From positions 1 to 61,100 of the IMG/VR virus record IMGVR_UViG_3300021962_000107: DNA of 61,100 bases; one strand, written 5' to 3'. Below, one piece after another: positions 1 to 42,275 of the stretch. The notes under the pieces are model-generated. The model did not search any database. It was not told the origin of the DNA and worked only from the letters and a program-made list of their open reading frames with translations. The DNA comes from a virus. A program made the translations under genes and the position numbers. Position 1 is the first letter of the stretch; each line of letters starts with the position of its first letter.

Positions 1-2780
1 TTGGATATGTAGTAAAGGCTCATGCATCTTCTGGAGAAATCTTTGTTAATATTCAAAATGGTTATGAATTAAATGAACTTCACGGAGTTTTAATAAATGG
101 AGTATCTGATAATCAAGCATTGGTATATAATTCTTCTGCAAGTTTATGGTATAACGAATCAATTGTAAATTCTTTACAAGGTACTGAAAATGAAATTAAT
201 GTTTCCGCATCCACTGGAAATATAACCATTGGCATTCCAGATTCTCCACTTTTTATAACTCCAAACATTGGGGCAGCAACAGCAACATCTATTAATGGAA
301 CCACTATTCCAACATCTGCAAGTTTAGCTACAACAGAAGATTTATATTACTATTTAACTTCTGCGTCTGCTGCTTTATTATATCAACCAATAAGTGTAAG
401 ACTTTTTAATTTAACTGCTTTAGAAAATGTTGAAGGATTTTTAAGAACAGATGGAGGCTTGGGATGGGGTATAGATACTGCAGAATATTTAACAACTGGA
501 AATGCTTCCTCAACCTATTTAACTCAACTAGACGCTTCAGATCTATATCTTACTCAGATTGATGCAGAAAATACTTATTTGACACCAGTAACTAGTGCCT
601 CAATATATCAACCACTAGACGATGACCTAACTGCTATCGCAGCACTTTCTGGATCTTCAGGATTTTTAAAGAAAACACTTACAAACACTTGGACACTTGA
701 TACAAATACATATATAACTACATATGATGCTGGAATAACTTATCAACCAATTGGAAATTATGCAACTATTAGTGGGGCAGAAACTCTAACAAATAAAACC
801 ATGAGCTCTGCATTTGTTAATGATGTTTTAACATTTGATGATGGTGCAAATTCAAGCACTATTGATGTTGCTGGAGATAATCTTACAATTAATGCATATG
901 ATGATCTGTATCTAACTACTACAATTGGAGACATTGTATTACAACCAGATCATTTTGTAAAAATATATGATGAATATGTTGCTACACAAGAATGGGTGGG
1001 TTTTCAAAACTATTTAACACAGTCTAGTGCTTCTACTACATATCAACCAATTGGAAGTTATTCTACAACTTCCCATAATCATACGTTAGACAGTCTTTCA
1101 AATGTTGTAATTACTGGAACTCCTGCAGATGGACAGGCAATTGTTTGGGATACGGCTACTTCAAAGTGGGTAAACGAAACAGTTTCTGGTGGTGGTGGAG
1201 CATCATATCCTGATCAAACTGGAAATGATGGAAAGTTTTTACAAACAAATAGTGGAAGCGTATCTTGGCAAAATGTTGACTTTACAGGATATTTAACAGA
1301 ATCATCTGCGTCTACAACATATTTAACTCAGGCTTCTGCTTCTTCAACATACCAACCTGTTGGAAGCTATTTGACATCAGAATCAGACACCCTTGAAACT
1401 GTTACTGACAGAGGTGCATCTTCTACAAATGCTATTACAATTACAAATGCCACAGCAGCTTCTTCTCCAACAACTGGAGCACTTATTGTTACAGGTGGTG
1501 TAGGAATTGGTGAAGATCTATATGTAAATAATGATGTTCATATTGGTGGAGATATACATATTACAGGATCTATTAGTGGATCTTTAACATATGTAAATGT
1601 AAGTGATTTAGTTGTTACAGATCCTTTAATTTATCTTGCTGAAAGCAATCCTAATGATTCTGTAGACATTGGTATTTTTGGTGCATTAAATCATAGCTCT
1701 TCAGCATATTATCATACTGGACTTATTAGAGATGCCTCAGATTCTGGAAAGTGGAAACTGGCTTCAAATCTTTTAGATCCAATAAACAATATTATTGATT
1801 TTACAGGTGCAACATTTGATACATTAAAAATTGGAGCACTTGAAGTAACAGATGCCTCAACAACAAGAACAAATCTTGGTCTTGCTATTGGAACAGATGT
1901 TCAGGCTTATAATTCTACACTTGCAGCAGTCGCAGGTGGAACATATACTGGTGATGATAGTATCACAACTGTTGGAACTATTACAGTTGGAACATGGAAT
2001 GGTTCAACTATTGGATATGCCTATGGTGGAACTGGATTAACAACTCTTGGAGCTGCTGGTCAAGTTCTCAAGGTTAATTCTGGAGCAACTGCTCTAGAAT
2101 GGGGATCAGCAGGACCATCCTTTACAGACTCTGCAGGTCTTGCATCTATAATTTCAGATGAAACTGGAACTGGATCTCTTGTATTTGCAGATACTCCAAC
2201 TTTAATTACACCAAATATTGGAGTTGCTACAGCAACATCTATCAATGGAACAACCATTCCATCCTCTGTAACACTAACAAAAACTTCTGATAATCTATCA
2301 GTATTTGCCAGTACAACTTCTGCAGAGTTAGCATCTATAATTACAAATGAAACTGGCTCTGGCTCTTTAGTATTTTCAAATTCTCCTACACTAGTAACCC
2401 CAAATATTGGAGCAGCAACTGGAACTTCTTTAACTACAACTGGTAATGTAATTAGTCATACTGATATTTTAACTCCAACATTTGTAACAAACTCTTATAC
2501 CTTGACAATAGGAGACGATGGTGACATATTAATGTTAAATAATTCAACTACTGCTGGAAACCTTTTAATTCCAACAGATGCTTCTGTTAATTTTCCAATT
2601 GGAACACAAATTACTATTGTTCAGCAGGGAACTGGTCTAATCACTGTATCTGCAGTAACTCCAGCAACAACCACATTAAATTCAACTCCTGGAGCTAAAC
2701 TAAGAGCACAATGGTCTTCTGCTTCATTAATAAAGACTGCAGCAAATACTTGGCTGCTAGTGGGAGATCTAACGGTATAA
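1..2780 (+). CDS. Tail fibre / receptor-binding protein, 5' truncated by window edge
   Basis: The reading frame is open from the first complete codon at position 3, so the gene starts upstream; 925 residues are visible. It is Ser/Thr/Ala-rich, low in charge and full of fibre-type repeats: TPNIGAATATSINGTT-like units occur near both ends and again near the C-terminus, ETLTNKT and TGGVGIGEDLYV-like segments sit in the middle, and a Gly-Gly-Gly-Gly hinge lies near 1190-1200. A unit at 81-170 (HGVLINGVSDNQALVYN) resembles a later one at 1096-1185 (NVVITGTPADGQAIVWD), showing an internal duplication. The C-terminal part from about 2505 (DGDILMLNN onward) looks like the beta-rich tip found on many marine and freshwater phage fibres. 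Family repeats are known from phage tail fibres; host-receptor binding is inferred. Confidence 0.85.
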   Translation, partial: GYVVKAHASSGEIFVNIQNGYELNELHGVLINGVSDNQALVYNSSASLWYNESIVNSLQGTENEINVSASTGNITIGIPDSPLFITPNIGAATATSINGTTIPTSASLATTEDLYYYLTSASAALLYQPISVRLFNLTALENVEGFLRTDGGLGWGIDTAEYLTTGNASSTYLTQLDASDLYLTQIDAENTYLTPVTSASIYQPLDDDLTAIAALSGSSGFLKKTLTNTWTLDTNTYITTYDAGITYQPIGNYATISGAETLTNKTMSSAFVNDVLTFDDGANSSTIDVAGDNLTINAYDDLYLTTTIGDIVLQPDHFVKIYDEYVATQEWVGFQNYLTQSSASTTYQPIGSYSTTSHNHTLDSLSNVVITGTPADGQAIVWDTATSKWVNETVSGGGGASYPDQTGNDGKFLQTNSGSVSWQNVDFTGYLTESSASTTYLTQASASSTYQPVGSYLTSESDTLETVTDRGASSTNAITITNATAASSPTTGALIVTGGVGIGEDLYVNNDVHIGGDIHITGSISGSLTYVNVSDLVVTDPLIYLAESNPNDSVDIGIFGALNHSSSAYYHTGLIRDASDSGKWKLASNLLDPINNIIDFTGATFDTLKIGALEVTDASTTRTNLGLAIGTDVQAYNSTLAAVAGGTYTGDDSITTVGTITVGTWNGSTIGYAYGGTGLTTLGAAGQVLKVNSGATALEWGSAGPSFTDSAGLASIISDETGTGSLVFADTPTLITPNIGVATATSINGTTIPSSVTLTKTSDNLSVFASTTSAELASIITNETGSGSLVFSNSPTLVTPNIGAATGTSLTTTGNVISHTDILTPTFVTNSYTLTIGDDGDILMLNNSTTAGNLLIPTDASVNFPIGTQITIVQQGTGLITVSAVTPATTTLNSTPGAKLRAQWSSASLIKTAANTWLLVGDLTV

Positions 2781-2787: not shown

Positions 2788-3825
2788 ATGAACATTATTG
2801 GGTCAGTTGCATCTGCAACAAGAAAAATATTTAGAGATACTTTTAATAGGGCAAATCAGACTGGAATTGGTACATCATCTGATGGATCAACCTGGAATAT
2901 AATTAGAGGATCTTTTAATATTACTACAAACAAAGCTGATGGTCAAACTCCTTCAAATTATCCAACTGCTACAGTAGATATGCCAAAAGATACAGTAACG
3001 ATTAGTTTAAGCGGTGTTACTCAAGGATCTACCGCAGCCCTATGGGTTACAGATAGTGGAAACTGGTTTGGCGTTGGAATTGATCAAGAAACAATTTCAT
3101 GTAATTGTCAAACCTGTTCAACACCAGGAAATTGTAATGCCACTAACTATGTTTGCAATGTAGCAAATTATCCTTGTAACGCTACGAACTTTTCTTGTAC
3201 AACTTGGAGTCGTGTCTGCAACTCATCAAGTTATTTTTGTGATGTTGTTGGAAATAGATTCTGTAGAGGGTATACAAGTCCTTGTAATGCTATGAGTACC
3301 CCGTTTAGTCCATGTACTGCATGGTCTAGAGTTTGTAGTAGTGGATATAATACTGGAAACTGTAACTCTACAAACTCTATGACAACGTGTAATGCATACA
3401 CTAGTCCATGTAATGCAGGAAACTATCCATGTTCTACATGGTCTACAGTATGTAATTCAGCTTCATATCCATGTGCTGCATATAATGCAACAACTTTCTA
3501 TAGTTGTAATTGTCAAACTTGTTATCCTCAATATATTAGATTTATTAGATCTGCTTCTAATACAGTAACAGAACTGACTAACTGGTTGGTGGCTAGTGTT
3601 GTTCAATCTTTTAAAGTTATTATATCTTCTATAAATCCAGCAAAAACATCAGCAACAGCAACTATAAAGCCATATTCAGACACCAACCTATCTACACAAA
3701 TTGGATCAGATTTAACATATACTCCAACTGGGGTTGCAATTAATGCAAAATATGGTATAATGGTAAAACCTTCAAGTTATTCTCAAGGAACAACTATTGA
3801 TGAAATATCAATAGAAACAAATTAA
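2788..3825 (+). CDS. Fibre-like protein with a 22-cysteine heptad insert
   Basis: 345 residues. Residues 15-100 (FRDTFNRANQTG, then alternating beta strands) and 250-345 look like two halves of one beta-sandwich/LamG-type virion domain. Between them residues 105-245 hold 22 cysteines. The block opens and closes with the same SCNCQTC motif (104-110 and 239-245), and inside it most Cys are exactly seven residues apart (116, 123, 130, 137, 144, 151; 159, 166; 176, 183; 201, 208, 215, 222, 229), with recurring YPCNA, TSPCNA and TWSRVC pieces. Such regular Cys suggests a disulfide or metal-bound rod inserted in a loop. Start ATG has no Shine-Dalgarno and follows a TATAAT by six bases. Virion role is inferred from neighbours; function of the insert is unknown. 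Confidence 0.8.
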   Translation: MNIIGSVASATRKIFRDTFNRANQTGIGTSSDGSTWNIIRGSFNITTNKADGQTPSNYPTATVDMPKDTVTISLSGVTQGSTAALWVTDSGNWFGVGIDQETISCNCQTCSTPGNCNATNYVCNVANYPCNATNFSCTTWSRVCNSSSYFCDVVGNRFCRGYTSPCNAMSTPFSPCTAWSRVCSSGYNTGNCNSTNSMTTCNAYTSPCNAGNYPCSTWSTVCNSASYPCAAYNATTFYSCNCQTCYPQYIRFIRSASNTVTELTNWLVASVVQSFKVIISSINPAKTSATATIKPYSDTNLSTQIGSDLTYTPTGVAINAKYGIMVKPSSYSQGTTIDEISIETN

Positions 3826-4103: not shown

Positions 4104-4814
4104 TTGAAGCTAATACACTTTGTATGTGCGGAATCAATGGATATTGGAAAACCGCAACCAATTAAAAAATTTATTCCAGATTGGTACAAAAAAGCAGAAA
4201 CTCATTATGTTTCTGATGAGGACGACATATCTGTTGAAAATGGAGAGCAAAAAAAGACTGCAGGTTTAAAAACATGTGTTCCATTTTTAGACGCAATGGT
4301 ATCTGGATATGCACTTGTAGTTCCATTTGATATATATGTTGGAAGAACTGAAAATGGAGATCTTGATATAAAATGGAATGCTCCACAAGGATGGGAAAAT
4401 TTTATTGAAGAAAGACCAAAGCAGTCTGGATCTACTATGCCAAGACCAGCAGGACATGCTCCAAATCATCTAGTTTGGTCAGGTAGATGGGGTATAAAAG
4501 TTCCTAGAGGATATAGCGTATTAGTTACTCATCCATTAAATAGACAAGATTTGCCTTTTACAACTTCTTCTGCAATAATGGATAGTGATAAGTTTTTTGG
4601 AAATGGAAATATTCCATTTTTTATCAAAGAAGACTTTGTAGGAGTAATAGAAAAAAATACTCCTTTTGCTCAAATAATTCCAATTAAAAGAAAAAAGTGG
4701 AAAATGGTTCACAATGATGCACTGGTATATGACATATCAAGGCAAAGTCATAGAATTAGAGAAAAAGAAGGAATGTACAAAAAGAAATATTGGACTAGAA
4801 AGGACTACTCTTAA
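4104..4814 (+). CDS. DUF6065-like protein of unknown function, copy 1
   Basis: 236 residues from TTG 4104; the start is chosen because the resulting N-terminus (KLIHFVCAESMDI, then IPDWYKKAE) aligns with the paralogue at 5124 (KIKFISCMPEIDI, then VPEWYRRLP). Shared landmarks are a CVPFLDAMVSGY segment, P-x-GYSVLVTHPLNRQDLPF, a DSDKFF loop, NTPFAQIIPIKR and the ending WTRKDYS. The order of these blocks matches the 7810 DUF6065 protein (CVPMNVANSYGW; LPFTFTFNYKF; QPLFTFFPIER), which suggests one superfamily. No known active site is recognisable. Overlaps the next gene by one base (TAATG). Confidence 0.75.
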   Translation: MKLIHFVCAESMDIGKPQPIKKFIPDWYKKAETHYVSDEDDISVENGEQKKTAGLKTCVPFLDAMVSGYALVVPFDIYVGRTENGDLDIKWNAPQGWENFIEERPKQSGSTMPRPAGHAPNHLVWSGRWGIKVPRGYSVLVTHPLNRQDLPFTTSSAIMDSDKFFGNGNIPFFIKEDFVGVIEKNTPFAQIIPIKRKKWKMVHNDALVYDISRQSHRIREKEGMYKKKYWTRKDYS

Positions 4815-5134
4815 TGGCAAAAAATCACAATCATGAAAATGGTATAAGAGTTTTAACAACAAGAGAGATGATTAATGACTTTTTTACTAGAAGAAAAAAG
4901 TATAAAAATAAGATATCCTTAGATTCTAGTGCAATGCCACCACCTCCTCCAAGCTCTAAAATAAATTATTTAGCAATTATTTTAGATGATGAAGTGCAAG
5001 AGATAATGAGAGCACAAAATAGGTTGGCAGCACTATTACTAAGTCAGCCATTGATTGTAGAATTTGATCCAGAAGAAATTCAGCCAAATATTGGTTGGAG
5101 CTACGTTGATGGAAAATTCTATAATGAAGAGTAA
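4814..5134 (+). CDS. Small protein with PPPPP linker, copy 2 of duplicated pair
   Basis: 106 residues, ATG overlapping the previous TAA. An N-terminal charged segment (MINDFFTRRKKYKNK) and an AMPPPPPSSK linker precede the domain shared with the 3836 protein (ILDDEVQEIM, LLSQPLIVEF, IGWSYVDGKF). It is therefore a paralogue with an added N-terminal arm. It overlaps the following DUF6065-like gene by 11 bases, as expected for translational coupling. Function unknown; structural or assembly role inferred. Confidence 0.75.
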   Translation: MAKNHNHENGIRVLTTREMINDFFTRRKKYKNKISLDSSAMPPPPPSSKINYLAIILDDEVQEIMRAQNRLAALLLSQPLIVEFDPEEIQPNIGWSYVDGKFYNEE

Positions 5135-5789
5135 TAAAAAAATTAAATTTATATCTTGTATGCCAGAAATAGATATACCACATCCATATCCAGCAAGTAA
5201 GCTAGTTCCAGAATGGTATAGAAGACTTCCTGGTGCTTCAAATAAGGTTGAGACAGTAAAGAAATGTATTCCAATACTAGACGCACTAACTTCTGGGTAC
5301 ATGATAACTTTGCCAGTAGATGTTCATTTTAATCAAGAAGAAAAAAGTTTTTGGTACGACTCTCCATTTCAGATTAATTCTGACCACTATGTTTCACAAA
5401 CACAGGGAGTTGATATAGGTAAAGAATTTGATGAGCAACCACATAAATGGATTAATCAGTGGTTAATTGAAACTCCAAAAGGGTATAGTTGTTTATTTAT
5501 ACATCCATTAAATAGAATGGACCTTCCATTTAGATCCTTTACTGGAATTGTAGATACAGACAAACATCCAATTGCCATAAACTTTCCTTTTGTTATGAAA
5601 AAAGATTTTTCTGGAGTAATTCCAGCAGGTACTCCAATTATACAGATTATCCCATTTAAAAGAGATGACTGGTCTATGGATGTAATTGATGACAGACCTT
5701 TTAAAGAACATCCAGAGGCACATGAAGTAGAAAATCCACCGTTCAACTGGTATAAAAGAAAATGGTGGACAAGAAAGGTATATTCTTAA
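5124..5789 (+). CDS. DUF6065-like protein of unknown function, copy 2
   Basis: 221 residues from ATG 5124. A longer frame exists upstream, but it would overlap the preceding gene by over 60 bases; ATG 5124 has a GGAAAA purine run eight bases before it and gives an N-terminus matching the 4104 paralogue. Landmarks: VPEWYRRLP (about 25-33), a CIPILDALTSGY block, FIHPLNRMDLPF, a VDTDKHP loop, GTPIIQIIPFKR and the terminal RKWWTRKVYS. The two paralogues share overall architecture and near-identical C-terminal tails but have diverged elsewhere, so the duplication is not recent. No catalytic motif recognised. TAATG overlap with the glycosyltransferase gene that follows. Confidence 0.78.
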   Translation: MKSNKKIKFISCMPEIDIPHPYPASKLVPEWYRRLPGASNKVETVKKCIPILDALTSGYMITLPVDVHFNQEEKSFWYDSPFQINSDHYVSQTQGVDIGKEFDEQPHKWINQWLIETPKGYSCLFIHPLNRMDLPFRSFTGIVDTDKHPIAINFPFVMKKDFSGVIPAGTPIIQIIPFKRDDWSMDVIDDRPFKEHPEAHEVENPPFNWYKRKWWTRKVYS

Positions 5790-7069: not shown

Positions 7070-7810
7070 ATGCCTGAAATAAGTATCGTAACTGGTAATG
7101 CAACCAACATGTCTTTTATTAATAGCTCCTCTGTTGATTTAATTATTGCCGCACCCCCATTTATTTATAAAAGTCCAGAAATATATGGAGGAGATCCAAA
7201 AAAACAAATAAACTTTAATCATAATAAAATGTTAAATCTTCTTATTAAAAGTACTAAAGAGATGGAAAGAGTTTTAAAGCTAACAGGAAGTATATGGATT
7301 GAAATATCTCCAGAAGATGACTTAATGCATAGATATATTTCAAAAGTATTAAAAAAAACTAATTTAAAACATGTTGATACAATTATTCATAAAATATCAG
7401 AAGATGAATATAAGTCAAAAAATGATGAATTTATTTATAAAGATTGGTATTTATGGTTTCATCTTGTAAAAGATTCTGATGCATTCTATAAAAATCCATT
7501 TAAAATAAAAAAATTTAGAGACCCATTATGGGAGTTGAAAAATACAAATAAAGATGATATAATTGACAAAACTTTAAGACTAAATTATCCAAATATTCCT
7601 AATTACACTGTTATTAAAGATATACCAGAAAGGCTTATCGAAATGTACACTAAACAAGGTGGTCTAGTTTTAGATCCATTTGGAGGAAGTGGAACGGTTG
7701 CTTCTGTGGCTTATAATTTAAATAGAAATGCCATAAGTGTTGATATATCTGAGGATCAAACAGAGATAGCAAAAAGAAGACTAGAATTAACGAAAAGTAT
7801 TGATAAGTGA
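7070..7810 (+). CDS. DNA methyltransferase-like protein (N4/N6 class) with variant motif IV
   Basis: 246 residues. The C-terminal half carries the SAM-binding signature LDPFGGSGTVASVA followed by a strand ending in VDIS, typical of the PF01555 N4-cytosine/N6-adenine methylase family. Near the N-terminus (25-31) the motif IV equivalent reads IIAAPPF, where active members have D/N/S-P-P-Y/F; Ala replaces the catalytic polar residue. A classic target-recognition domain is short (about 100-170). It may protect phage DNA, be altered in chemistry, or be inactive. It overlaps the following gene by one base if that gene begins at ATG 7810. Located in the accessory cassette rather than the replication block. 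Confidence 0.78.
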   Translation: MPEISIVTGNATNMSFINSSSVDLIIAAPPFIYKSPEIYGGDPKKQINFNHNKMLNLLIKSTKEMERVLKLTGSIWIEISPEDDLMHRYISKVLKKTNLKHVDTIIHKISEDEYKSKNDEFIYKDWYLWFHLVKDSDAFYKNPFKIKKFRDPLWELKNTNKDDIIDKTLRLNYPNIPNYTVIKDIPERLIEMYTKQGGLVLDPFGGSGTVASVAYNLNRNAISVDISEDQTEIAKRRLELTKSIDK

Positions 7811-8535
7811 TGTTTAATAAAAAATACATAGAAATTAATAGACTTTCTGAAACTCCAGTATTTGAAGTAATTCCAGGAAAAGTAAAAAGAAAATGGATGG
7901 ATAAAACAGAAGGAAATGCCTATAAGTGTGTTCCAATGAATGTTGCAAATTCTTATGGGTGGACTGTTTTATCTCCTTTAGAATTTTCTGCAACTTGGGA
8001 TGGTGGGAATGCAAAACATTCTCTTCAAGTTGATTTGCCAGCAAATAGTCCATTTAGATTTGCAGCATCTGAGTTTGGTCATGGAATTTTATCTATTGTT
8101 CCAGATTTTATAGTTAGAACATCAAAGAATGTTTCTTTATATGTAAGGGGAGTTCCAAATCAACTTGCTATAGGTCTACAGCCATTTGATGGCATAATTG
8201 AAACAGATTGGCTACCTTTTACTTTTACATTTAATTATAAGTTTATTAAATCTGGAAGGTTAACAATTAAAAAAGATCAACCACTTTTTACATTTTTTCC
8301 AATAGAAAGAGGATATATAGAAAATTTTGAAACTAGAGACATAAATGTTTATGATGATAAAGAGTTTTATGAAGATTATTTAAAATACTCAGACCTAAGA
8401 GAGGATCAAAACTCTGGCAAAGATAGTAAAAATGGTGGTGCATATTTAAAAGGTAAGTTATACGATAAAGAGTTTGAAATAGAAAATCATATAAAAAAGG
8501 TTAGCCTTTCAGAGTTTAAAAAGAAGGAAAAATAG
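7810..8535 (+). CDS. DUF6065 family protein
   Basis: 241 residues from ATG 7810 (TGATG overlap; a GTG one codon upstream is possible). The segment RKWMDKTEGNAYKCVPMNVA followed by NSYGWTVLSP, then SATWDGG, FGHGILSI, a long beta-rich middle and DQPLFTFFPIERGY is the order seen in DUF6065 proteins of bacteria and phages. It appears to be a distant relative of the two tandem proteins at 4104 and 5124, which keep the same succession of blocks but not the WDGG. No biochemical role is established for the family as far as I know. The C-terminal 60 residues are charged and partly low-complexity. Confidence 0.78.
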   Translation: MFNKKYIEINRLSETPVFEVIPGKVKRKWMDKTEGNAYKCVPMNVANSYGWTVLSPLEFSATWDGGNAKHSLQVDLPANSPFRFAASEFGHGILSIVPDFIVRTSKNVSLYVRGVPNQLAIGLQPFDGIIETDWLPFTFTFNYKFIKSGRLTIKKDQPLFTFFPIERGYIENFETRDINVYDDKEFYEDYLKYSDLREDQNSGKDSKNGGAYLKGKLYDKEFEIENHIKKVSLSEFKKKEK

Positions 8536-9584: not shown

Positions 9585-9995
9585 GTGAATGAAATAATTT
9601 TAGTTGATATTGATGGAACTGTTGCACATAGATCTAATAGAGGTCCGTATGAATATGATAAAGTTGGATCAGACATTCCAGATAAAAATATTATAGATAT
9701 TCTACAATGTTTTTGGAAGTCTAGTAAGACATTAATTTTTGTTACTGGTCGTGAAGACTCTTGCTATGAAGAAACTTATGAGTGGCTTGTTGACAACTGT
9801 CCGCCATTTTCAAAACTATATATGCGTAAATCTGGAGATTATCGTAGTGATTCAGAAGTTAAAAAAGAAATATATGATCTTTATATAAAAGATAAGTTCA
9901 ACGTTTTATGCGTTATTGATGATCGTCAATCAGTCGTTGATATGTGGAGAAGCATAGGCTTAAAATGTTTACAAGTTGATTATGGAAACTTTTGA
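9585..9995 (+). CDS. HAD phosphatase of the polynucleotide kinase 3'-phosphatase type
   Basis: 136 residues from GTG 9585. HAD motif I is DIDGT (D8, D10, T12), motif II is VTGRE (53-57), a conserved Lys follows in SEVKKE, and motif III/IV is IDDRQSVVDMW (111-121). The LYMRKSGDYRSDSEVKKEIY stretch and DDR-x2-VV-x-MWR ending match the C-terminal phosphatase domain of T4-type Pnk. It is a stand-alone phosphatase without the kinase domain. Likely substrates are 3'-phosphate or 2',3'-cyclic ends of nucleic acid, but sugar phosphates cannot be excluded given the glycan neighbours. Overlaps the next gene by one base. Confidence 0.8.
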   Translation: MNEIILVDIDGTVAHRSNRGPYEYDKVGSDIPDKNIIDILQCFWKSSKTLIFVTGREDSCYEETYEWLVDNCPPFSKLYMRKSGDYRSDSEVKKEIYDLYIKDKFNVLCVIDDRQSVVDMWRSIGLKCLQVDYGNF

Positions 9996-12448: not shown

Positions 12449-13264
12449 ATGGCTATTCAATGGGGATCCTGGGTATACGCTGGTGGAAACGGTATGCGTA
12501 TTGGTCTGGATATATCCTGGTCAGCTGTTGATTCAGGATCATCTAGTACAACTGCAACAATAGCTGTTTGGACTCAAAATCAGTATAACTATGCTGATGC
12601 TCAAACAATTACATATGGTGGCTCATTATCTGGAACAACAAACTATACAAATAATGGTGCTACTGGAACTAGCACACAAAGAGCAACAAAAACTTATACT
12701 CACACATATGGCTCAAACCCTGCAACATTTACTTTTTCTGCAACACTTTCTGGTCTATACAATGGTGGAAATCCAAGTGTTTCAGTTTCCAGTACTACTC
12801 CAACTAGACCTGCTCCACCACCTCCACCACCTCCTCCACCTCCTCCGCCTCCTCCACCTCCTCCTCCAATATTTGCTCCATCTGCACCACAGTCATTTGC
12901 TGCAAATACTAACACTTTTGGACAAATAGGTCTTTCATGGTCAGCACCAGCTAGTAATGGCGGTTCTGCTGTAACTAGTTATGTGCTTCGTAATGGCACA
13001 ACTGTGTTACAAAATAGCTTATCCACATCTTATACTCATACAGGTCTATCTCCAGATACGGATTATTCCTATACAGTTACTGCTGCCAATGCTGTTGGTG
13101 AAGGAGCTGCAGCATCTCTAACAGCTAGAACTCTTGGAGGAATTGTAAAAGTATGGAATGGTACACAATATGTAACAGCTATTCCAAAAGTGTGGAATGG
13201 ATCATCATGGGTCAATGCTCAGGCAAGAGTTTGGAATGGAACAGAATGGAAATATGGAATTTAA
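12449..13264 (+). CDS. Fibre protein: beta domain, polyproline linker, fibronectin III, VWNG repeats
   Basis: 271 residues. Residues 1-120 form a beta-rich domain; about 18 consecutive prolines follow near 125-143; residues 145-228 are a fibronectin type III domain (PQSFAANTN, W-S-x-P, TSYTHTGLSPDTDYSYTVTA, ending ARTLGG); the C-terminus has three copies of a VWNG-x-x-(Y/W) unit. FnIII modules are common on phage tail and fibre proteins and bind surface carbohydrate weakly. The polyproline rod separates the anchoring and binding parts. Last gene of this fibre operon. Confidence 0.8.
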   Translation: MAIQWGSWVYAGGNGMRIGLDISWSAVDSGSSSTTATIAVWTQNQYNYADAQTITYGGSLSGTTNYTNNGATGTSTQRATKTYTHTYGSNPATFTFSATLSGLYNGGNPSVSVSSTTPTRPAPPPPPPPPPPPPPPPPPPIFAPSAPQSFAANTNTFGQIGLSWSAPASNGGSAVTSYVLRNGTTVLQNSLSTSYTHTGLSPDTDYSYTVTAANAVGEGAAASLTARTLGGIVKVWNGTQYVTAIPKVWNGSSWVNAQARVWNGTEWKYGI

Positions 13265-41291: not shown

Positions 41292-42275
41292 ATGCCAGGC
41301 GAAAATTCAGGTCCAGCAGGAGCGGCAAATACTAGGAGAACTTCTCCTCCACCACCACCTCCACCAAGGAAAAGTCCACCCCCTCCACCTCCTCCTCCAC
41401 CAAGGAAGACACCTCCGCCACCACCGCCACCACCCCCACCGCCTCCACCAAGAAGCGACTCCGTTCAAGCAGCACAAGCTGCTGCAAGACTTGCCTCTCC
41501 ACCACCTCCTCCAAGAAGCGACTCCGTTCAAGCAGCACAAGCTGCTGCAAAGGCTTCTGCACAAGTTACGGCAGAAGCAGCAAAGTATGCTGAAGCTGGA
41601 CCAAACTTTAAAGGAGCTGGAGTAACTCCATATTTAGATAAAAATGGAAATGTAACACCAATAAGTACTAGCTCAGGACCATCAAAAACACCTCCACCAC
41701 CTCCAGCAGTGGATGATTTTGTAGAAGTTCTTAAAATAATGGATCCAACCCCAGAGCCACCAATGACAATTATGCCAGTTCCTGACTCTGTTGTAAAAAT
41801 TGCAACAAGAAATGTTACAGATATTTCTTCATTAGTTCCACAATTTGATCCAGAATATATTAAGAAAATATTGTTTGAAAATCTTTCTGCAATAGAGTTA
41901 TCAATAGTTGAAAGACACGATACAATTGAGGGAATTAATCAAAGGTATTCTATTATTTCTAACCTTTCTGAAATAAGAGAAAAATATGATGTAGCTAAAC
42001 AATTAACTGTTATGGACAAGTTTAAGCCACTAACAAAAATTTTTACTATTAATATTGAAGATAAAATTCCTCAAGAAGACTATCTTGTATTAGAAGGTCT
42101 TGACTCTACCTATCAATACCTTGATCAAAATAATAATATAGTTACTCGTGAAAAGGGGTATTATTATATTGACACTAATGGAGACCTTGTTATAGAGTTA
42201 ATAAACTTAGAAAAAAACCAGGAAGTAGAGATTTTGATAGACACAAATGGTACAATATATAGGATGGAATCATGA
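41292..42275 (+). CDS. Polyproline-rich tail protein
   Basis: 327 residues with a GGAGG ribosome site. The N-terminal 140 residues contain at least five proline runs (up to 13 prolines) separated by short basic or Ala/Gln-rich pieces, including two copies of PPPPPRSDSVQAAQAAA. The remaining part is a compact alpha/beta domain (DPEYIKKILFENLSAIELSIVERHDT, then YYYIDTNGDLVIELINLEKNQEVEILID in pieces). A polyproline rod may act as a stiff arm from the tail tip. Proline codons are mixed, which lowers DNA slippage. Overlaps the next gene by four bases. Confidence 0.75.
   Translation: MPGENSGPAGAANTRRTSPPPPPPPRKSPPPPPPPPPRKTPPPPPPPPPPPPPRSDSVQAAQAAARLASPPPPPRSDSVQAAQAAAKASAQVTAEAAKYAEAGPNFKGAGVTPYLDKNGNVTPISTSSGPSKTPPPPPAVDDFVEVLKIMDPTPEPPMTIMPVPDSVVKIATRNVTDISSLVPQFDPEYIKKILFENLSAIELSIVERHDTIEGINQRYSIISNLSEIREKYDVAKQLTVMDKFKPLTKIFTINIEDKIPQEDYLVLEGLDSTYQYLDQNNNIVTREKGYYYIDTNGDLVIELINLEKNQEVEILIDTNGTIYRMES
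41448..41550 (+). repeat. Perfect 40-bp direct repeat in the polyproline gene
   Basis: The 40 bases at 41448-41487 are repeated without change at 41511-41550, 63 bases apart, in the same frame. They encode the RSDSVQAAQAAA piece. Perfect identity suggests a recent duplication or gene conversion. Confidence 0.85.
42248..42256 (+). promoter_or_regulatory. Possible internal promoter (TGGTACAAT)
   Basis: TG-G-TACAAT near the end of the polyproline gene precedes AGGATGG and ATG 42272. It may give the following genes an extra transcript, although the genes also overlap and are probably co-transcribed. Confidence 0.35.

What the first reader, a model, noticed from the sequence alone, without database searches (positions are those of the whole stretch)
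2788..3825. Fibre protein with a 22-Cys insert of heptad periodicity between two SCNCQTC motifs
Seen: residues 105-245 have Cys at 116, 123, 130, 137, 144, 151, then 159, 166, 176, 183, 191, 201, 208, 215, 222, 229, most steps being exactly seven, and identical SCNCQTC pieces at each end. The flanks look like two halves of one beta sandwich. Inference: the insert is a disulfide- or metal-stabilised rod or loop exposed on the virion. Heptad Cys with intervening Asn/Thr/Pro is not a fold I recognise.
Basis: partly seen in the sequence, partly recalled or inferred. Interest (0 to 1): 0.72.

Follow-up and report, generated by a model that had tools for sequence, protein, structure and literature searches.

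The report
Disulfide-zipped hairpin in phage lectin protein
An uncharacterised virus protein carries a long cysteine-studded loop whose two halves mirror each other across 65 distinct relatives, which strongly implies a hairpin zipped shut by up to 23 nested disulfide bridges, a structure not described at this scale.

Summary
In detail: window 2788-3825 encodes 345 aa with 22 Cys between two SCNCQTC motifs, and 11 of 21 steps are seven. The heptad is only a local variant. In 90 distinct relatives (IMG/VR) the same lectin-like beta-sandwich is split at one turn by an insert with periods of 4-13, by a Cys-free Tyr version, or by almost no insert. The Cys number is even in 65 of 65 Cys-bearing inserts (other residues about half). 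The Cys spacings are mirror-symmetric about the insert's centre (arm 1 versus reversed arm 2, r=0.70; parallel order 0.17). Gains and losses occur in pairs at mirrored positions, and in one virus type the gene is cut at the predicted tip, leaving 10 Cys on each half. This means nested pairing, Cys i with Cys n+1-i: one long two-arm hairpin with cross-arm disulfides (11 rungs here, up to 23 in relatives). Half-counts are often odd, which argues against within-arm pairs and Cys4 metal sites. The lectin-like base, its place after a fibre gene, and fast evolution and swapping of the insert suggest a receptor-binding projection. Pairing is strongly supported by sequence; disulfides, shape and function are inferred.

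The parts
2788..3096 (+). N-terminal half of lectin-like beta-sandwich (residues 1-103)
   Evidence: AlphaFold2 pLDDT mostly 80-93; conserved in relatives, WVTDSGNW near the end
3097..3522 (+). Cys-rich insert (residues 104-245), proposed two-arm hairpin with 11 nested disulfides 105-245,107-242,110-240,116-229,123-222,130-215,137-208,144-201,151-192,159-183,166-176
   Evidence: Parity, mirror spacing and covariation across relatives
3100..3285 (+). Arm 1, Cys105-Cys166
3286..3312 (+). Proposed hairpin tip NAMSTPFSP (residues 167-175)
   Evidence: Centre of the mirror symmetry; the gene is split at the equivalent place in L032/L034
3313..3522 (+). Arm 2, Cys176-Cys245
3523..3822 (+). C-terminal half of beta-sandwich (residues 246-345), starting YPQYIRFIRS
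   Evidence: AlphaFold2 pLDDT 75-94; conserved
120..2780 (+). Upstream fibre-like gene, 886 aa; a long Cys-poor fibre or structural gene precedes the hairpin gene in most lineages checked
   Evidence: PHROG 6002 virion structural protein, E 4.5e-6; neighbourhoods of 19 loci
4104..4814 (+). Downstream conserved neighbour, phrog_7084, unknown function; a second copy lies at 5109-5789
   Evidence: E 2.4e-37 and 3e-46; similar gene order in most loci examined

Best explanation
The protein is a lectin-like beta-sandwich of a tailed phage whose one beta-turn has been extended into a very long antiparallel two-arm hairpin. Cysteine i of the outgoing arm faces cysteine n+1-i of the returning arm, and the two form a disulfide: 11 rungs here, 4 to 23 in relatives. 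Between rungs, segments of complementary type face each other (for example YP-type against W/YS-type in this clade), so register is probably set by the pairing and then locked by oxidation, perhaps after lysis. The rod stands out from the sandwich, most likely on a tail fibre, and its exposed, fast-changing segments are the likely host-contact surface. Shown by sequence: nested pairing, even parity, coordinated change of both arms. Inferred: actual disulfides, exact fold, virion position, receptor binding.
For: Cys count even in 65/65 distinct inserts while other residues are even in about half; with one vote per lineage at 60% flank identity, 28 lineages, P=3.7e-9. Mirror spacing: Fisher P about 1e-24 over 28 lineages, 3e-12 after removing the three outermost spacings at each end; Spearman 0.70 against shuffle maximum 0.45 and parallel order 0.17. 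Examples: L052 2,3,5,12,11,34,7,18,7 versus 3,2,10,11,12,35,8,18,7; L046 5,5,6,5,48,8 on both arms; L038 9x5 versus 11x5 and its relative L080 9x4 versus 11x4; L019 24/27 against 36/39 in L047; L013 has one extra Cys per arm at mirrored places. L032/L034: gene split at the centre, 10 Cys on each half, spacings 2,3,21,3,5,3,6,3,15 versus 3,2,22,2,7,2,8,2,12. Unit content covaries across arms (r=0.35, P=0.004; r=0.75, P=0.005). AlphaFold extends the sandwich into strands at the insert's base, 103-112 and 236-245; likewise in L027. Half-counts odd in 37/65 argue against within-arm pairs. DNA inverted repeats cannot explain it: the reverse complement of a Cys codon is not a Cys codon.
Against: No disulfide or structure has been measured. 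In about a third of lineages the mirror test is not significant alone (L027, L117, L191, L192, L197 and others), partly because uniform spacing gives the test little power. Lineages share ancestry, so combined P values are optimistic. The bacterial cytoplasm is usually reducing. No proteomics shows the protein in virions.
Confidence: 0.8

Rival explanations
1. Heptad solenoid or rod with local disulfides between neighbouring Cys within one arm.
For: Lag-7 periodicity in the window clade; Cys-stabilised 12-residue solenoids exist in insect antifreeze proteins (own knowledge).
Against: Other lineages have many other periods or none. Half-counts are odd in 37 of 65 inserts. Spacing mirrors across the centre rather than repeating in parallel order. 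The split gene divides 10+10 at the centre.
Confidence: 0.05
2. Metal-binding rod (Zn or Fe held by Cys of two rungs).
For: CxC and CxxC motifs are common at the base.
Against: Only 28 of 65 totals are divisible by four; His and acidic partners are rare (His 0.1%, Asp 1.4% in the sampled inserts); Cys-free forms exist.
Confidence: 0.03
3. Disordered Cys-rich adhesive loop with no fixed pairing.
For: Low complexity; pLDDT about 25.
Against: Even parity in all 65, mirrored spacing and covariation need fixed pairing.
Confidence: 0.02
4. Hairpin pairing is right, but the disulfides join two neighbouring subunits in a domain-swapped oligomer rather than the two arms of one chain.
For: Phage fibres are usually oligomeric (own knowledge); the split form L032/L034 shows that two chains could serve; nested spacing does not separate the two cases.
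Against: The AlphaFold monomer already has strands at both ends of the base of the insert within one chain; the insert starts and ends at one turn of one sandwich.
Confidence: 0.1

Closest known systems
Cystine-ladder beta-hairpin peptides (theta-defensins, protegrins, gomesin)
   Same: Antiparallel hairpin closed by disulfides; theta-defensins have three bonds in 18 residues (PMC13001179)
   Different: Here 4-23 rungs, arms of up to about 200 residues, spans between rungs from 1 to about 50 residues, built into a phage protein, cationic residues rare; no homology found
Bovine ultralong CDR H3 (stalk and knob)
   Same: A turn of a beta-sandwich drawn out into a beta-ribbon stalk, Cys-rich and varied (PMC5994613)
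   Different: There the disulfides are in the knob and the stalk is not a ladder; vertebrate antibody, no homology
Mycobacteriophage Douge central fibre gp20 and TM4 gp23 receptor-binding domain
   Same: Same general lectin-like sandwich by fold comparison (8zdp E 1.2e-3, prob 1.00; 9n6a E 0.26, prob 0.91); Douge domains bind the host surface (PMC13033339)
   Different: No Cys-rich insert is mentioned in the passages read; 7-9% identity
Uncharacterized proteins of uncultured Caudovirales (A0A6J7WYT9 and others in BFVD)
   Same: Evident relatives, E down to 9e-23
   Different: Without any description; their inserts were not compared here

Membership tests
Cystine-ladder hairpin (works like) | Even number of Cys with nested i to n+1-i arrangement | tested here: met
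   65/65 even; mirror spacing
Cystine-ladder hairpin (works like) | Disulfides actually formed | not testable with these tools
   Needs mass spectrometry or a structure
Cystine-ladder hairpin (works like) | Two antiparallel beta strands | tested here: inconclusive
   Strands predicted only at the base, 103-112 and 236-245; rest pLDDT about 25
Theta-defensin/protegrin family | Sequence homology, short cationic peptide | tested here: not met
   No Pfam hit for the insert or whole protein; insert poor in Lys and Arg
L-type lectin-like / phage carbohydrate-binding sandwich | Sandwich fold shared with solved members | tested here: met
   Foldseek to Douge gp20 (E 1.2e-3, prob 1.00), VIP36 (E 0.055), TM4 gp23; marginal E-values, model includes the unfolded insert
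L-type lectin-like / phage carbohydrate-binding sandwich | Glycan binding | not testable with these tools
   Needs a binding assay
Phage tail fibre / receptor-binding protein | Position in tail-fibre gene block | tested here: met
   Follows a fibre or structural gene in the window and most lineages
Phage tail fibre / receptor-binding protein | Present in virions and needed for adsorption | not testable with these tools
   Uncultured viruses
Diversity-generating retroelement target | Linked reverse transcriptase and template repeat | not tested
   No dedicated search; the mosaic changes point to recombination instead
Metallothionein-like or Zn ribbon | Cys in sets of four per metal site | tested here: not met
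   37/65 totals are not multiples of four

The most novel reading that the evidence does not exclude
A new class of protein fibre: a heterotypic two-strand zipper in which unlike repeat units face each other rung by rung, held by cross-arm disulfides or, in a Cys-free branch, by aromatic residues (7-residue units opposite 6-residue units), which lengthens and shortens by paired gain or loss of units in both arms and serves as an exchangeable receptor-binding rod of phages.
Probability: 0.4. Interest if true: 0.92.

Novelty: new variant of a known kind. Interest (0 to 1): 0.82.

Why it matters
It would be a protein architecture in which long-range pairing can be read directly from sequence, much as RNA stems are read from covariation, and which AlphaFold2 did not resolve here. 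It would give phages a covalently locked, extensible projection on a probably glycan-binding base, raise the question of how two distant arms change together, and offer a template for designed disulfide rods. It also gives a testable role to a viral protein family with no annotation.

Tried and rejected
Pfam, PHROGs and PDB sequence searches of the whole protein, of the alignment and (Pfam, PDB) of the insert alone found no family. tblastn against cultured phages with the window protein, with consensus flanks and with L192 found nothing; an insertless relative gave one marginal hit. Two genome-collection scans found no relative. AlphaFold could not fold the insert with 19 or 11 aligned sequences. 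Heptad solenoid, local disulfides, metal sites and DNA inverted repeats were considered and rejected on parity, half-count, spacing and codon grounds. Literature searches found no description of this; most subscription papers are not held. The P/non-P and 6/7 mirror pattern of Cys-free inserts was looked at only informally. One script stopped with an error in its last part (alternative-centre test); its earlier results stand and were repeated. Alternative centres were ranked for 21 lineages there: the true centre came first in 10 and second in 5.

Full report
Observation. The ORF at 2788-3825 is real, 345 aa, with 22 Cys confined to residues 105-245 and SCNCQTC at both ends. Eleven Cys pairs lie seven apart, more than shuffles of the insert give at any lag (P about 5e-5). 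The window is the whole 61,100-base virus record.

Family. No annotated family, solved structure by sequence, or cultured phage matched. Viral-contig scans gave relatives. After locating both flanks with profiles built from the alignment, 90 distinct proteins remain: 65 with Cys-bearing inserts, 22 with long Cys-free inserts and 3 with almost no insert, 9 aa. The flanks are one beta-sandwich: AlphaFold2 pLDDT mostly 80-94, with Foldseek matches to the central fibre gp20 of mycobacteriophage Douge (E 1.2e-3, prob 1.00), to L-type lectins VIP36 and ERGIC-53 and to the TM4 gp23 receptor-binding domain, all with marginal E-values. The Douge domains related to carbohydrate-binding folds bind the host surface (PMC13033339). 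The best viral model matches are uncharacterised proteins of uncultured phages. The insert sits where the three short relatives have a turn.

The real regularity. The heptad belongs to the window's clade. Other lineages have Cys steps of 4-5 (L192), 5 (L045), 8-10 (L014), 9 facing 11 (L038), 11-13 (L056, L098) or mixed. Two features hold throughout. First, the Cys number is even in 65 of 65 distinct inserts, whereas each of twelve other residue types is even in 26-40 of 65; with one vote per lineage at 60% flank identity (28 lineages) P is 3.7e-9. Second, the list of Cys spacings reads nearly the same from both ends. Arm 1 against reversed arm 2 correlates at 0.70 over 242 rungs; within-lineage shuffles reach 0.45 at most and the parallel order gives 0.17. 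Nineteen of 28 lineages are individually below 0.05, and the signal survives removal of the conserved base motif. Arm 1 matches its own arm 2 better than any other lineage's arm 2 in 16 of 26 tests.

Covariation. Relatives differ in both arms together: L080 has one 9-residue and one 11-residue unit fewer than L038; L047 has 36/39 where L019 has 24/27, and one more Cys per arm; L015 has 13/18 where L018 has 22/27; L013 has one more Cys in each arm than L011, at mirrored places; L031, L033 and L052 vary one long span (46, 46, 34) with its mirror (49, 50, 35). Within the window clade, facing heptads change as pairs: NAASYP with NAY[GS][ST]V, VANYA with [AV]YAWT, GDYP with TWAFN, and L005 combines them consistently. 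Between L007 and L008 the SPSYP and YYYA units have exchanged arms. Unit similarity on one arm predicts that on the other (r=0.35, P=0.004; r=0.75, P=0.005). In L151, 46 Cys form 23 rungs, with a run of ATYSTVPGN-type units facing a run of NATNAAAYP-type units.

Split gene. In two contigs (L032, L034) the gene is cut in the insert: a stop, a short gap of about 17 bases, then an ATG. Each half carries 10 Cys and their spacings mirror (P about 0.001). The cut lies at the predicted tip, 3 and 4 residues from the innermost Cys. The halves are read as they stand.

Interpretation. Mirror symmetry with even parity is what a nested antiparallel hairpin with Cys i bonded to Cys n+1-i gives. Within-arm pairs would need an even number of Cys per arm, but 37 of 65 half-counts are odd; four-Cys metal sites would need multiples of four, but 37 of 65 are not. 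An inverted DNA repeat cannot create it, because the reverse complement of a Cys codon codes for other residues. AlphaFold continues the sandwich as strands into the base of both arms (103-112 and 236-245 here; 117-126 and 212-222 in L027) and gives up beyond it. Disulfide formation itself, and whether the arms are plain beta strands, are not shown; rungs of 9 facing 11 residues suggest bulged or looped rungs.

Cys-free branch. L060, L169, L067 and others have aromatic repeats of 7 residues facing repeats of 6, and then the reverse nearer the tip in the clearest cases. This was inspected, not formally tested, but suggests that pairing does not need disulfides.

Function. The gene follows a fibre or structural gene in the window and most lineages; phrog_7084 genes follow in the window and similar proteins follow in most loci. 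Within the window clade the insert evolves faster in amino acids than the flanks (dN 0.13-0.23 for the window protein against five relatives, versus 0.04-0.08 in flanks), and it moves between backgrounds: L003 and L004 have 99% identical inserts in 89-90% identical flanks, while L002 and L003 have nearly identical flanks and 79% identical inserts at DNA level. With the lectin-like base, this favours a receptor-contact projection. It is inference; no virion or binding data exist.

Limits. Lineages are related, so combined P values overstate certainty. Some lineages (L027, L117, L191, L192, L197) do not pass the mirror test alone. Model coordinates could not be inspected, so cross-strand distances were not measured.

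Noticed in passing
L032 3962-5016; L034 3908-5007: The hairpin gene is split into two ORFs at the predicted tip in two different contigs, 10 Cys on each half.
   Followed up: yes
L118 2953-5019, L119, L121, L122: Nearly insertless relatives; those read in full (L118, L119, L122) instead carry a long C-terminal part rich in Cys and poly-proline.
   Followed up: partly
L017/L018 (same contig) and L055 2218-5236: Two copies of the hairpin gene (paralogues) in one virus.
   Followed up: no
window 4104-4814 and 5109-5789: Two copies of phrog_7084 (unknown function) next to the hairpin gene; the first has relatives in 50 tailed-virus records, nearly all of haloarchaea (HF2 and others). 7807-8535 is DUF6065, weakly related.
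   Followed up: partly
window 12449-13264 and 41292-42275: Two proteins with long poly-proline runs, the first with tail-protein PHROG matches.
   Followed up: no
window 9585-9995: PNKP-type phosphatase domain (PF25109, E 9.7e-48) near the fibre block.
   Followed up: no
L003 and L004: Nearly identical inserts in diverged flanks: the insert appears to be exchanged by recombination.
   Followed up: partly
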